Assembly: GCF_041438805.1 (NCBI RefSeq)
Contig: NZ_CP109190.1
Location: forward strand, 4,898,001-4,962,000
From: Streptomyces sp. NBC_01707
GTDB taxonomy: Bacteria; Actinomycetota; Actinomycetes; Streptomycetales; Streptomycetaceae
Length of the DNA: 64,000 bases
Reading direction: 5' to 3'
Shown here: in pieces, positions 58,819-62,310 of the stretch
Layout of the letters: every line of letters begins with the position of its first letter
How positions within the stretch are numbered: the stretch's first letter is position 1
The notes under the pieces: generated by a model
Seen by the model: the letters and a program-made list of their open reading frames with translations, nothing else
What the model was told of the DNA's origin: nothing
Database searches by the model: none
Position numbers and translations under genes: made by a program

Positions 58819-58946
58819 GCGAGATCCTGGCGAAAACCACCGGACTCCGGCAGACCACCGATGGAAACCCGCTCCTGTCCGAGTCAACCGGCCGGACAAC
58901 CCCCGCGCCACCGCAGGACCGGGCGACGGCTGCCTACCCTTTGTCC

Positions 58947-59369
58947 ATGGCCGTAGACGTACGCAACCCCAGTCCCGAGTACCTCGCCTTCTGGCGCGAG
59001 TACCACGTGTGCACCCTGACCACCCTCCGCCCCGACGGCACCCCGCACGTGGTGCCGGTCGGCGTGACGTACGACCCCGAGGCCGGGCTCGCGCGCATCA
59101 TCACCAACAAGAGCAGCAGAAAGGTCGCCCACGTCCTGGCCGCCGGCCCGGACGGGGCACGGGTGGCGGTCTGCCAGGTCGACCGGGGCCGCTGGGCGAC
59201 GCTGGAGGGCCGTGCGACGATCCGCACGGAGCAGGACGTGGTCGACGACGCGGTACGCCGTTACGCGGAACGCTACGAGCGCACCCCGGCACCCAATCCG
59301 GACCGGGTCGTCATCGAGATCGCCCTCGACCGGGCCCTCGGGCGGGGCGCACCGGTCCGCACGGCCTGA
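58947..59369 (+). CDS. PPOX-class F420-dependent oxidoreductase
   Basis: 140 aa with the split-barrel flavin-type fold. Key parts are YLAFWREYHVCTLTTLRPDG, TPHVVPVGVTYDPEAGLARI, TNKSSRKVAHVLAAG and VDRGRWATLEGRATI. The family binds F420 in actinobacteria and reduces varied substrates. The true substrate is unknown. A TTG at 58941 gives an alternative start. It is divergent from clpB; the clpB HAIR region lies between them. Confidence 0.9.
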   Translation: MAVDVRNPSPEYLAFWREYHVCTLTTLRPDGTPHVVPVGVTYDPEAGLARIITNKSSRKVAHVLAAGPDGARVAVCQVDRGRWATLEGRATIRTEQDVVDDAVRRYAERYERTPAPNPDRVVIEIALDRALGRGAPVRTA

Positions 59370-59488: not shown

Positions 59489-59809
59489 TCAGGCACTGCG
59501 GGGGGTGGCGGTGATGGTTTCGGGTTCGATCAGCTGGTGGTCACGCTGATCGAGGTTGACGAAGATCATTCCGTACCGGATCGCACAACGAACGGGCTGC
59601 GGCGCCCCGCGGGGGCGACGAAGACATCGGTAGGCGCGGACCTCTTCGTCGTCCTCCAGGACGACGACGATCGGCTCCCCGAGCAGGGTGACCATCAACG
59701 AATCGCCATGGCGGGGGAGTGCCGTGAGCAGATCGATGAAGTGCCACCCTGAACGGTATGCGGAGGCCATCTCCCGCCGGAAAACCCGGTCGTCCGGCGG
59801 GATGGTCAT
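59489..59809 (-). CDS. Small protein resembling a Rieske N-domain that lacks metal ligands
   Basis: 106 aa. VFRREMASAYRSGWHFIDLL followed by PRHGDSLMVTLLGEPIVVVL and EVRAYRCLRRPRGAPQ aligns by eye with the start of Rieske oxygenase alpha subunits (usual form: FEREMERIFRRSW... GEPVVVV... CRHRGA). The CxH ligand pair is replaced by RRP, and the second CxxH motif reads CAIRYG, so a [2Fe-2S] cluster cannot form. About 20 residues between the motifs are also missing. Its ATG overlaps the stop of the upstream peptide gene, so the two are coupled. Its role may be binding or scaffolding. Confidence 0.65.
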   Translation of the reverse strand: MTIPPDDRVFRREMASAYRSGWHFIDLLTALPRHGDSLMVTLLGEPIVVVLEDDEEVRAYRCLRRPRGAPQPVRCAIRYGMIFVNLDQRDHQLIEPETITATPRSA

Positions 59810-60006
59810 GCGCCCGCCAGATCCGCCGGGATGCTGTCCCAGGTGATATCGCCTGCCACGTTCAACGACTCAGCACCTTGGGCGGCAGCACTCGGCACGG
59901 ACGCCGCATCGGCGCCCCCTCCGGAATAACCGCCGCTCAGTACGCCACAGGCCAATGCTGCGACGAAAGCAGTGGCAAGCACTGAGCGAAGCATTCGCTT
60001 GTACAT
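59806..60006 (-). CDS. Small secreted peptide precursor
   Basis: 66 aa from the ATG at 60006 (a GTG at 60024 would add six residues). A basic start MYKRMLR and hydrophobic helix SVLATAFVAALACGVLSGG form a signal peptide. The processed C-terminal part of about 30 residues, after GGADA, ends SLNVAGDITWDSIPADLAGA. There are no further cysteines, so it is neither a disulfide-rich nor an obvious lanthionine precursor. Its stop overlaps the start of the Rieske-like gene (ATGA). It is divergent from a regulator pair and might be a secreted signal. Confidence 0.65.
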   Translation of the reverse strand: MYKRMLRSVLATAFVAALACGVLSGGYSGGGADAASVPSAAAQGAESLNVAGDITWDSIPADLAGA

Positions 60007-60097
60007 AGTCGGCTTCGTCCTCACTTGATGGGTTCATCTCCCCCGCACTAAGAAGATGTCTCACCTGGGCACGCGAACACCACCGGGTCGATGCATC

Positions 60098-60121
60098 ATG
60101 TTCCTGCACGTTCAGGAACAT
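60098..60121. promoter_or_regulatory. Palindromic operator or leader hairpin of the regulator pair
   Basis: ATGTTCCTG-cacgtt-CAGGAACAT is a perfect 9-bp inverted repeat with a 6-nt spacer. It lies 14 bp before the first regulator start and about 90 bp from the divergent peptide gene. It may be an autoregulatory site or mask the ribosome-binding site. Confidence 0.65.
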
Positions 60122-60134
60122 GGGGGGTGGAGAA

Positions 60135-61118
60135 ATGACCACAAGCAACACAAAACCGGCACATCCTCATGGGATCACCGACCTATGCGAAGCGGGAAAG
60201 CGGCTTTACGCCAGCGCTTTGCGCTCCGGACGAATATCCCGTCCCGAGGTGGAACCGGCACCGTGCTTGGTGGATTTCGCGCTCCTGCACCCCGACCCTG
60301 ACGACGCCGACTGGCTTCGCCCGGTTCCGCCGTCCGCCGCACTGGCCAAGCGCCTCCACCCCATAGAACGCGAGATCCAGGAACGCCGGCACGCCGCTGT
60401 CGAACTGACCGACTCGTTCGAGCCGTTCATGGACATCAGCGCCCAGGACCCGCCGACCACGCACGCCATCACGGTGCTCGAGGGCGTCAATCGCATCAAC
60501 GCGGCGATCGACCTCGCCACCGCGGAGTGCCGCACCGAGGTACTCACCATCCAGCCCGGAGGCGGCCGGAGCGAGCACATCCTCAGCAAGGGCCTGGAAC
60601 GCGGCCAGGCAGTGATAGACCGCGGCGTCAGCATCCGCACCCTCTACCAGCACACGGTCCGGCACAACCGCGGCACCTTCGTCTATGCGGAACGGCTGGC
60701 CGAAGGCAAGGTGGAAATCCGTACGCTCGAAGAGCTCATCGAGCGCCTGATCATCTTCGACGGGACTGTCGCCTTCATCCCCGCACAGGATGATCGTCAA
60801 GTCGCTCTGGAGCTCCGCCACCCAGGACTGGTCTCGTACCTGACCAAGGTCTTCGAACAGCTCTGGCAGCGCGCCGACCCACTGCTGGAAGAGATCCAGT
60901 ACGACCCCGTCCCCAAGGGCATCAGTGGCGTCCAACGCTCCATCGCCCAACTCCTCGTCGAGGGACACGTCGACGACTCCATCGCTCGCCGGCTTGGAAT
61001 GAACGTACGCACCTGTCGCGCGCACATCGCCAAACTGAACGCCGCCCTCGGCAGCGGCAGCCGGGCCCAACTCGGCTATCTCATAGCCCAGTCGGGAATT
61101 CTGAACCAGAACCACTGA
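60135..61118 (+). CDS. LuxR-type HTH regulator with PLD/TrmB-like central domain (paralogue A)
   Basis: 327 aa. The N-terminal helical region (1-115) includes LYASALRSGRISRPEVEPAP and PVPPSAALAKRLHPIEREIQ. The middle (120-235) starts AITVLEGVNRINAAIDLATA and contains the conserved IIFDGTVAFIPAQDD strand, as in phospholipase-D-like ligand domains of TrmB regulators. The C-terminal HTH is VQRSIAQLLVEGHVDDSIAR followed by RLGMNVRTCRAHIAKLNAAL. The second gene is a close paralogue on the same strand, 172 bp downstream. Start at MTTSNTK, preceded by a G-rich stretch. Confidence 0.85.
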   Translation: MTTSNTKPAHPHGITDLCEAGKRLYASALRSGRISRPEVEPAPCLVDFALLHPDPDDADWLRPVPPSAALAKRLHPIEREIQERRHAAVELTDSFEPFMDISAQDPPTTHAITVLEGVNRINAAIDLATAECRTEVLTIQPGGGRSEHILSKGLERGQAVIDRGVSIRTLYQHTVRHNRGTFVYAERLAEGKVEIRTLEELIERLIIFDGTVAFIPAQDDRQVALELRHPGLVSYLTKVFEQLWQRADPLLEEIQYDPVPKGISGVQRSIAQLLVEGHVDDSIARRLGMNVRTCRAHIAKLNAALGSGSRAQLGYLIAQSGILNQNH

Positions 61119-61174
61119 CCACGACGCGCTCCTTCCCGGACGCGGGCGGCCGCGGCCGCGACACGGGGAAGTGC

Positions 61175-61248
61175 GGCCACGCTTCCACTGCACAGGAGGA
61201 GTTCACCACCCGGCGGGGACAACACTCCCCCGGTGGCCACGCTTCCAC
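61175..61248 (+). repeat. 14-bp direct repeat between the two regulator genes
   Basis: GGCCACGCTTCCAC occurs at 61175-61188 and again at 61235-61248, exactly 60 bp apart. A 7-bp inverted repeat CACTGCA/TGCAGTG (61186-61192, 61263-61269) overlaps and flanks it. The region lies 40-120 bp before the second regulator start and may be its promoter. Confidence 0.65.
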
Positions 61249-61290
61249 CACCGTCATCTTGCTGCAGTGCACAAAAGTAGGGGATCCCGA

Positions 61291-62310
61291 ATGAGCAGAG
61301 ATGAGGAGAAACCACCGCATTCGCACGGCGAGCTGGAACTGTGCGACTCCGCGATCCTGCTCTACACCGAGGCCCTCCGCAGCGGCCGGATCGCCCGCGC
61401 CGACCTCGCACCCGCCCCATGCCTCATCGACATGTCGCTCGTCCACCCCGACCCCCGGGACGACGCGTGGATGCGCCCCGTGCCACCGTCCGCCGCCCTG
61501 GCACATCTGCTGCAGCCCGTCACCCGCGACATCCACGAACGGATACGGCGCACAGCGGCCCTCGCGGACACACTGGCTCCCCTGGCATCCGTCGCCAGCG
61601 AGGACCCCGACCACGCCATCACCGTTCTTGAGGGAAAGCCGCTGATCAGGGCAGCCATCGGTGCCGCGACGGCGGAAGCATCGGAGGAGGTGCTGACGAT
61701 GCAGCCAGGCAGCACCAGACCCTTCAAGCAAATGCCGGAGGCGCTGCCCCGCGCCCTGTCCATGATCGAGCAAGGGGCCAGTCTGCGACACATCTACCAG
61801 CACTCGGCCCGGTACGCTCCCCGGCTCAAGGAATACCTGGCCCAGGTCCCCGCGGACCGTCTCCAGGTACGCACCGTCGAACAGACCGTGGAACGACTGC
61901 TCATCTTCGACCACGCGGTCGCCTTCATTCCCGCAAACGCCGAGCGGGACCTCGCCCTGGAGATCCGCCACCCCGCCCTGATCCACTTCCTGATCCAGAT
62001 GTACGAGGTCCTGTGGACGCAGGCCACTCCCCTCACCCAGCAACTGCCCACATCCTCCCCCGGCACCCCCGTCACCGCCGTACAACGCAGCATCGCGCGC
62101 CTCCTGGTCGAAGGCCACGTCGACGACGCGGTGGCCCGCAAGCTGGGCATCAGCGTCCGCACATGCCGGTCCCACATCGCCAAACTCATGCAGGCACTCG
62201 ACGCCTCCAGCCGGACCCAACTGGGCGCGCTCATCGTCCAGTCGGGCATCGCCGAGCCGGACGGTGCCGCCCGCACCGACGCGGAAGGCCCGCCACCCGT
62301 TTCCGGGTGA
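61291..62310 (+). CDS. LuxR-type HTH regulator with PLD/TrmB-like central domain (paralogue B)
   Basis: 339 aa. The order matches paralogue A throughout: LYTEALRSGRIARADLAPAP, RPVPPSAALAHLLQP, AITVLEGKPLIRAAIGAATA, LLIFDHAVAFIPANAERDLA, then the HTH (VQRSIARLLVEGHVDDAVAR, KLGISVRTCRSHIAKLMQAL). It probably arose by tandem duplication. An N-terminal His-rich start (PPHSHG) and a C-terminal extension differ. The ATG follows AGGGGAT at good spacing. A hairpin overlaps its stop. Confidence 0.85.
   Translation: MSRDEEKPPHSHGELELCDSAILLYTEALRSGRIARADLAPAPCLIDMSLVHPDPRDDAWMRPVPPSAALAHLLQPVTRDIHERIRRTAALADTLAPLASVASEDPDHAITVLEGKPLIRAAIGAATAEASEEVLTMQPGSTRPFKQMPEALPRALSMIEQGASLRHIYQHSARYAPRLKEYLAQVPADRLQVRTVEQTVERLLIFDHAVAFIPANAERDLALEIRHPALIHFLIQMYEVLWTQATPLTQQLPTSSPGTPVTAVQRSIARLLVEGHVDDAVARKLGISVRTCRSHIAKLMQALDASSRTQLGALIVQSGIAEPDGAARTDAEGPPPVSG

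What the first reader, a model, noticed from the sequence alone, without database searches (positions are those of the whole stretch)
59489..62310. Compact divergent module: two paralogous PLD/LuxR regulators, a secreted peptide and a ligandless Rieske-like protein
Seen: two tandem genes share the same layout (helical N-domain, TrmB/PLD-like middle, LuxR HTH). Divergent from them are a secreted 66-aa peptide and a 106-aa protein, joined by an ATGA overlap, with a palindrome in between. Established: TrmB middle domains bind small ligands; secreted peptides can be cell-cell signals. Inference: the set may be a peptide-linked regulatory circuit that is not formally described.
Basis: partly seen in the sequence, partly recalled or inferred. 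Interest (0 to 1): 0.75.

Follow-up and report, generated by a model that had tools for sequence, protein, structure and literature searches.

The report
Streptomyces peptide-signal and receptor module
Most Streptomyces species appear to make their own short peptide signal (a D-x-x-W motif) beside a gene regulator whose sensor domain changes in step with that peptide, which looks like an undescribed bacterial chemical language.

Summary
At 250 Streptomyces loci, fetched through these genes, the secreted peptide lies between the ligandless Rieske-like gene and divergent regulator Reg1. It carries a tetrapeptide [D/E/N]-x1-x2-W, usually repeated: 172 of 183 distinct multi-copy precursors repeat one identical tetrapeptide, yet 43 occur overall. 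Core codons of adjacent repeats differ by 403 synonymous and 16 nonsynonymous changes. Reg1's phospholipase-D/TrmB-like domain tracks the core: residue 141 is Met for x1=Ser (59/59 sequences), Val for Thr (29/29), Leu for Pro (46/46), and changes on 30 of 49 x1-change branches of an independent clpB tree (p=6e-23). Met-for-Ser also holds in 30-40%-identical regulators with their own DxxW peptides (6/6 Ser, 0/12 Thr). Best reading: a species-specific peptide pheromone plus intracellular receptor. Binding, processing and import are inferred; two co-evolution tests did not single out the sensor; Reg2 does not follow the code; the Rieske-like role is unknown. S. coelicolor SCO3664, whose disruption raises actinorhodin over 50-fold, may be Reg1 by position.

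The parts
59489..59809 (-). Rieske-like 106-aa protein without iron ligands, conserved C-terminal TPRSA, start codon overlapping the peptide stop
   Evidence: 328 of 392 Streptomyces genomes, 31 of 394 class genomes, all of the own genus
59806..60006 (-). Secreted peptide precursor, 66 aa, N-terminal MYKRMLRSVLATAF signal-like segment
   Evidence: secretion judged by hydrophobicity only
59836..59850 (-). Predicted signal core DITWD (residues 53-57); D53 and W56 invariant in the alignment
   Evidence: per-position homogeneity and codon analysis
60093..60106 (-). Conserved DNA element CAGGAACATGATGC, right half of a palindrome, probable operator/promoter of the divergent pair
60098..60123 (.). 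Palindrome CATGTTCCTGCACGTTCAGGAACATG (imperfect at the centre) between the divergent genes
   Evidence: sequence; left half GTTCCTG within 1 mismatch in 180 of 212 loci
60120..61118 (+). Reg1: TrmB-like N-domain, PLD-fold sensor, LuxR-type HTH; proposed receptor (alternative start 60135)
60456..60902 (+). Reg1 PLD/TrmB-like sensor domain (residues 113-261)
60540..60542 (+). Codon of Reg1 Val141, the residue that tracks core position x1 most closely
   Evidence: not among the top six in the 55-locus tree
60570..60611 (+). Reg1 residues 151-164: S151, I154, S156, K157, G158, G162, Q163, A164 track x1 or x2
61291..62310 (+). Reg2, 48% identical to Reg1, same layout; neighbours of this kind do not follow the recognition pattern

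Best explanation
The module is a peptide-pheromone system. The small gene encodes a secreted precursor from which a short peptide with core [D/E/N]-x1-x2-W-x (DITWD here) is released, in many species from several copies per precursor. Mature peptide re-enters cells and binds the non-catalytic phospholipase-D-fold domain of Reg1, whose HTH domain then changes transcription, including of the divergent pair through the conserved palindrome. x1, x2 and the residue after W vary between species and set specificity (pherotypes); candidate reading residues are 131, 141, 151-164, 183-195 and 213-215. Shown here: gene association, core boundaries, purifying selection on the core, residue-specific co-evolution, and partial transfer of the rule to other genera. 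Inferred: secretion, cleavage, import, direct binding, autoregulation and target genes.
For: Peptide with [DEN]xxW next to Reg1 at 250 of 250 loci (loci fetched through module genes, ORF chosen partly by motif number). 172 of 183 multi-copy precursors have identical tetrapeptides (1000 shuffles: mean 4.4, max 12) while 43 major tetrapeptides occur. Within/between-precursor identity: x1 0.98/0.21, x2 0.96/0.23, W+1 0.77/0.13, flanks near background. Core codons 403 synonymous: 16 nonsynonymous; spacer codons 491:1565. On a tree built without the sensor domain, residue 141 changes on 20 of 33 x1-change branches (p=1.7e-19) and 158 on 19 of 55 x2-change branches (p=5.5e-12); the six Bonferroni-significant columns for x1 and the six for x2 all lie in the sensor domain. 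On an independent clpB DNA tree of 187 loci 141 ranks 1st and 162 2nd of 332 columns for x1. Nearest-neighbour prediction of the core with relatives excluded: sensor 0.36, N-domain 0.18, HTH 0.15, Rieske-like 0.06, random 0.02 (t=0.12). Distant regulators with their own DxxW peptides: Met141 in 6/6 with x1=Ser, 0/12 with Thr. Signal-like ORFs with D[ISTVPL]xW: 13 of 41 near non-Streptomyces regulators, 0 of 125 farther away.
Against: No expression, secretion, binding or import data. Among 98 disjoint sister pairs, sensor divergence after correcting for N-domain, HTH and Rieske-like did not differ between same-core and different-core pairs (p=0.16); without the N-domain as covariate both sensor and N-domain differed (p about 1e-6 each). 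On a clpB protein tree of 55 loci the top x1 columns were M6, R35, V165, L256, I172 and K157, not 141. On the clpB DNA tree 7 of 21 significant x1 columns and 4 of 14 x2 columns lie in the N-domain and 1 x2 column in the HTH. The absence of N-domain, HTH and Rieske-like hits is partly built in, because that tree was made from those columns. The Thr-Val half of the rule does not carry over to distant regulators (Leu, Ile, Ala or Val there), and those 18 were not corrected for kinship. 15 of 20 Streptomyces paralogue loci and 12 of 25 other-genus loci showed no such ORF within 700 bp. No protease or importer was seen among the genes examined between clpB and dnaJ. The Rieske-like protein's conservation is unexplained.
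Confidence: 0.8

Rival explanations
1. The precursor is a multi-core RiPP: the DxxW cores are modified, with the Rieske-like protein as partner, and the product is an antimicrobial or similar compound; Reg1 senses the product.
For: Multi-copy cores in a small precursor and a closely linked, often overlapping Rieske-like gene.
Against: Rieske ligands are absent; no modifying enzyme was seen among the genes examined from clpB to dnaJ; the N-terminus looks like a Sec signal (my hydrophobicity heuristic; no signal-peptide predictor was run); other genera have regulator plus DxxW peptide while the Rieske-like gene was found in no other genus at E<=1e-6.
Confidence: 0.1
2. The peptide acts inside the cell or in the membrane that made it (a self-sensing leader or anti-regulator that binds Reg1 directly) and is not a signal between cells.
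For: The co-evolution data show only that core and Reg1 match; nothing computed here shows export or import.
Against: Hydrophobic N-terminus with basic residues (required by the search, so not independent evidence); repeated cores separated by unconserved spacers suggest release of short pieces.
Confidence: 0.1
3. The homogeneous repeats are tandem duplications homogenised by recombination, and the match with Reg1 reflects shared ancestry of a linked cassette.
For: The module is physically linked; the sister-pair and small clpB-tree tests do not single out the sensor, and some N-domain columns also co-change.
Against: Adjacent repeats differ at many synonymous sites while spacers diverge; repeated Ser/Thr switches coincide with Met/Val at 141 on the clpB DNA tree (10 S>T with M>V and 7 T>S with V>M; 4 S>T without change); Met-for-Ser holds in distant regulators.
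Confidence: 0.04

Closest known systems
RRNPP/RRNPPA peptide quorum sensing of Bacillota (Rap-Phr, PlcR-PapR, NprR-NprX)
   Same: Secreted small precursor next to a cytoplasmic receptor; short mature peptide; tandem pheromone copies or pseudo-repeats are known in some Phr propeptides (PMC11343458, passages read). Other shared points are recalled.
   Different: Receptor is a PLD/TrmB-like plus LuxR-HTH protein, not a TPR protein; phylum is Actinomycetota, where signals are said typically to be enzyme-made small molecules (PMC10075063, passage).
TrmB/TrmBL2 family regulators
   Same: PLD-fold sensor domain, and by model a winged-helix-like N-domain with a long helix.
   Different: TrmB binds sugars (entry title of 2f5t); Reg1 has an added C-terminal LuxR-type HTH and co-varies with a peptide.
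LuxR-type quorum-sensing regulators (LuxR, CviR, VqmA)
   Same: C-terminal HTH; VqmA and response-regulator HTHs match Reg1 264-331.
   Different: No autoinducer-binding domain was detected; the sensor is a PLD fold.
BldK oligopeptide uptake and the 655-Da extracellular signal of S. coelicolor
   Same: An imported small peptide is presumed to signal onset of aerial growth, and different strains are suggested to use different peptides (PMC9640686, passage).
   Different: No sequence link found. The core of the locus nearest to S. violaceoruber (DSKWD) has mass 649.27, which does not match 655.

Membership tests
RRNPPA peptide quorum sensing | Receptor with TPR peptide-binding domain (recalled) | tested here: not met
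   No TPR family among Pfam hits up to E=1; the sensor is a PLD fold by model
RRNPPA peptide quorum sensing | Adjacent small secreted propeptide gene | tested here: met
   250 of 250 loci (loci chosen through module genes); secretion itself not tested
RRNPPA peptide quorum sensing | Mature peptide imported and bound by the cytoplasmic receptor | not testable with these tools
   Only co-evolution supports contact
LuxR (AHL) regulators | Autoinducer-binding domain | tested here: not met
   No such Pfam match up to E=1
LuxR-type HTH proteins | C-terminal GerE/LuxR HTH | tested here: met
   Reg2 above cutoff (30.5 against 23.5 bits); Reg1 below (17.3) but fold agrees
TrmB family | PLD-fold sensor after an N-terminal winged helix | tested here: inconclusive
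Phospholipase D enzymes | HxKx4D catalytic motif (recalled) | tested here: not met
   Absent in residues 111-255 of 250 of 250 Reg1 proteins
Rieske [2Fe-2S] proteins | Two Cys and two His iron ligands (recalled) | tested here: not met
   No Cys invariant in 37 aligned sequences; the one invariant His (H23) is not beside a Cys; NCBI still names many '(2Fe-2S)-binding protein'

The most novel reading that the evidence does not exclude
A phylum-level peptide language of Actinomycetota: hundreds of Streptomyces species, and other genera, each use a private [DEN]xxW pentapeptide read by a PLD-fold transcription factor through a readable residue code, tied to the control of antibiotic production and possibly to the long-sought imported developmental peptide.
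Probability: 0.6. Interest if true: 0.95.

Novelty: new variant of a known kind. Interest (0 to 1): 0.9.

Why it matters
One review-style passage I read assigns oligopeptide signals to Bacillota and enzyme-made small molecules to Actinomycetota (PMC10075063). A conserved peptide-receptor pair in most Streptomyces, with ligand and receptor specificity readable from sequence, would open cell-cell signalling in the main antibiotic-producing genus to direct test. If SCO3664 is Reg1, its disruption already raises actinorhodin more than 50-fold (PMC6585502), so the peptides might serve to wake silent antibiotic clusters. It would also be, as far as I recall, the first PLD-fold peptide receptor; I did not search the literature for that point on its own.

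Tried and rejected
Searched the library for a prior description or for locus tags with ten queries. No listed title or abstract start described a DxxW peptide or this pair. The library holds open-licence papers only and lists were capped, so absence is weak evidence. Papers: PMC6585502 (passages and section 7), PMC3282765, PMC2687793, PMC2631018, PMC9640686, PMC11343458 and PMC10075063 (passages only); the rest were seen as listings.

Reg2 as a second reader of the same peptide: 115 further regulators in 75 loci do not follow the code (x1=Ser: Val 32, Leu 15, Met 1 of 51).

Match with the 655-Da BldK signal: the nearest locus to S. violaceoruber gives DSKWD, 649.27 Da, so no support; the S. 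coelicolor peptide itself was not retrieved. SCO3664 as Reg1 is inferred from gene order (SCO3661 clpB, SCO3668 hspR), not from sequence. One search was meant to confirm it by name and did not (best named hit: S. violaceolatus). In PMC6585502 12 of 16 regulator mutants were restored by complementation; I did not see whether SCO3664 was among them.

A promoter/operator regulon: CAGGAACATGATGC occurs exactly once in the own genome and four more times with one mismatch, near the control count of two, so no regulon was inferred.

Peptides near the own-genome paralogues L003-L007: no signal-like DxxW ORF found within the fetched 1.5-kb flanks.

Limits of the counts: the 250 loci were gathered through peptide, Rieske-like or Reg1 searches and include some genomes twice; 220 precursors and 212 precursor-Reg1 pairs are distinct. 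The first, simpler search missed the peptide at 50 loci and picked a wrong ORF at 18 more; one search listed these 68 and one search replaced the rule. In one search the peptide ORF was chosen by signal-like N-terminus and then by number of [DEN]xxW motifs. Counts such as 59/59 are sequences, not independent events. In one search 19 distant regulators had a peptide; one (L332, DDDW) was left out of the Ser/Thr count, and L323 (FDWG repeats) was not counted. Asp162 was present in all 18 but also in many regulators without a peptide, so it does not discriminate there. Of the genomes with a regulator match, G018, G031, G058, G060, G064, G086, G088, G090, G096 and G137 (weak match only) were not fetched, and a 100-base stub (L274) stood in for G048, which was not examined.
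Full report
What is there. The window is from a Streptomyces-type genome (G000, 9.9 Mb). Between clpB and hspR/dnaJ lie a PPOX-class gene, the Rieske-like gene, the peptide gene, and two regulators.

Conservation of the module. The Rieske-like gene is found in 328 of 392 Streptomyces genomes and in 31 of 394 genomes of the class, all of one genus out of 137 (both at E<=1e-6). Of 162 homologues in the protein database 120 were shown, and those that carry an organism name are Streptomyces. I gathered 250 loci through the peptide, the Rieske-like gene and Reg1. All 250 have the Rieske-like gene, a signal-like small ORF ending near its start, and a divergent Reg1 orthologue. clpB is seen in 242 of 250, and 51 of 56 distinct long loci show both clpB and hspR. 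These figures are conditional on how the loci were found.

The peptide carries a core. A first alignment of 19 relatives showed a nearly invariant MYKRMLRSVLATAF and a variable number of DITW-like units; over all loci the N-terminus varies more. The unit is [D/E/N]-x1-x2-W. Copy number runs from 1 (37 of 220 distinct precursors) to 12. Of 183 precursors with two or more copies, 172 repeat one identical tetrapeptide; shuffling motifs among precursors gives 4.4 on average and 12 at most in 1000 trials. Over all precursors 43 major tetrapeptides occur: DSGW, DIGW, EPSW, EPTW, DITW, DIAW and others. Identity within against between precursors is 0.98/0.21 at x1, 0.96/0.23 at x2, 0.77/0.13 at the residue after W, and much nearer background outside. 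So the unit is a tetra- to pentapeptide. Adjacent repeats differ by 403 synonymous and 16 nonsynonymous codons at D, x1 and x2, but by 491 and 1565 in the spacers. The gene is therefore under selection for these residues, and the repeats are not merely young duplicates. The window's own precursor has one copy, DITWD.

The regulator tracks the core. For 212 distinct pairs I compared Reg1 divergence with core identity. At matched HTH and Rieske-like distance, sensor-domain distance is lower when cores agree in each of six bins (for example 0.17 against 0.36); the N-domain shows the same with a smaller gap (0.30 against 0.37 in that bin). When close relatives are excluded, the nearest sensor domain predicts the full core in 36% of cases, against 18% for the N-domain, 15% for the HTH, 6% for Rieske-like and 2% at random (t=0.12). 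I then mapped changes on trees by parsimony. On a tree that leaves out the sensor domain, residue 141 changes on 20 of 33 branches where x1 changes (p=1.7e-19) and residue 158 on 19 of 55 where x2 changes (p=5.5e-12). The six significant columns for each lie in the sensor domain, none of 110 N-domain or 71 HTH columns, and no Rieske-like column is significant; this last contrast is partly built in, since that tree was made from N-domain, HTH and Rieske-like columns. On an independent clpB DNA tree of 187 loci, residue 141 ranks first (30 of 49, p=6.2e-23) and 162 second (p=8.4e-15) of 332 columns for x1; S151 and G158 lead for x2. The pattern is simple: 141 is Met for x1=Ser (59/59 sequences), Val for Thr (29/29), Leu for Pro (46/46) and mostly Val for Ile, Leu, Val; 162 is Asp for Ser or Thr (88/88), Gly mostly for Ile and Leu, Ser or Gly for Val, Val/Met/Ile for Pro. 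This suggests direct contact, for example a hydrogen bond from Asp162 to Ser or Thr (inference). The window fits: x1=Ile with Val141 and Gly162, x2=Thr with Gly158.

Results that do not favour the reading. In 98 disjoint sister pairs the sensor showed no excess once the N-domain was a covariate (p=0.16); with HTH and Rieske-like alone as covariates, both sensor and N-domain diverged more when cores differed. With 55 long loci and a clpB protein tree, M6, R35 and V165 led for x1 and 141 was not in the top six, though G158 led for x2 (22 of 22 changes). In the 187-locus tree 7 of 21 significant x1 columns are in the N-domain, and 4 N-domain and 1 HTH of 14 x2 columns. For the first core residue one of four significant columns (K27) is in the N-domain. 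The N-domain may take part, or may mark whole-cassette exchange.

Beyond the module. Reg1 relatives at E<=1e-25 occur in 15 of 137 genera of the class. Of 25 loci fetched outside Streptomyces, 13 have a signal-like ORF with D[ISTVPL]xW within 700 bp of the regulator; such ORFs are 13 of 41 near the regulators and 0 of 125 farther away. Examples are DTGWN four times (L306), DTSWGRG three times (L311) and DTAWE twice (L320). In the examples seen they lie on the opposite strand just downstream of the regulator, unlike in Streptomyces. Of 20 Streptomyces paralogue loci 5 have one, with 5 of 41 near against 1 of 63 far. These regulators (30-40% identical to Reg1) give an out-of-sample test: residue 141 is Met in 6 of 6 with x1=Ser and in 0 of 12 with x1=Thr (by my arithmetic Fisher p = 1/18564, with no correction for kinship). 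With Thr they have Leu, Ile, Ala or Val, so only the Met-for-Ser half carries over; Asp162 is present in all 18 but also in many regulators without a peptide.

Control region. The element CAGGAACATGATGC is exact in 193 of 212 loci and within two mismatches in all 212, 11-14 bp from the Reg1 start in 211. It is the longest conserved stretch between the genes and forms an imperfect palindrome with GTTCCTG. It occurs exactly once in the genome. Autoregulation of the pair is the natural reading (inference).

Link to physiology. In S. coelicolor SCO3661 is clpB and SCO3668 hspR, so SCO3662-SCO3667 occupy this place. SCO3665 and SCO3666 are listed as LuxR-family. SCO3664, called 'regulator', is among the insertion targets that raised actinorhodin more than 50-fold, some more than 200-fold. 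That SCO3664 is Reg1 fits the order and the weak LuxR score of Reg1 but was not checked by sequence.

Verdict. The finding is real. The best reading is a peptide-pheromone and intracellular-receptor pair, a new variant of peptide signalling with an unrelated receptor fold, in a phylum for which I found no such system described in ten searches. Contact between core and Reg1 is strongly supported by co-evolution, with the counter-results above; export, processing, import and output remain inference.

Noticed in passing
L323, about 650-950 bp upstream of the regulator: A signal-like ORF with three copies of GFDWG next to a distant Reg1-family regulator; perhaps a variant core type.
   Followed up: no
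L004 (own genome, contig C2:220113-220979): Paralogous receptor with Met141, Asp162, Ala158, which by the code predicts a DS[A/G]W ligand, but no peptide ORF within the fetched flank; possibly an orphan receptor.
   Followed up: partly
59489-59809: NCBI names many homologues '(2Fe-2S)-binding protein' or ring-hydroxylating dioxygenase although no iron ligand is conserved; an annotation carry-over. The C-terminal TPRSA after a variable linker is nearly invariant.
   Followed up: yes
60120-60137: Reg1 start is probably ATG 60135 with GGGGGTGGAG ahead of it; the conserved CCCCC on the other strand is this ribosome-binding site.
   Followed up: partly
58941-59369: PPOX-class F420-dependent oxidoreductase-like gene, convergent with the Rieske-like gene, between the module and clpB.
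   Followed up: no
L116, L124, L188: Precursors with two different cores (DLAW and DLGW), three of the 11 exceptions to core identity; they may be pherotypes in transition.
   Followed up: no
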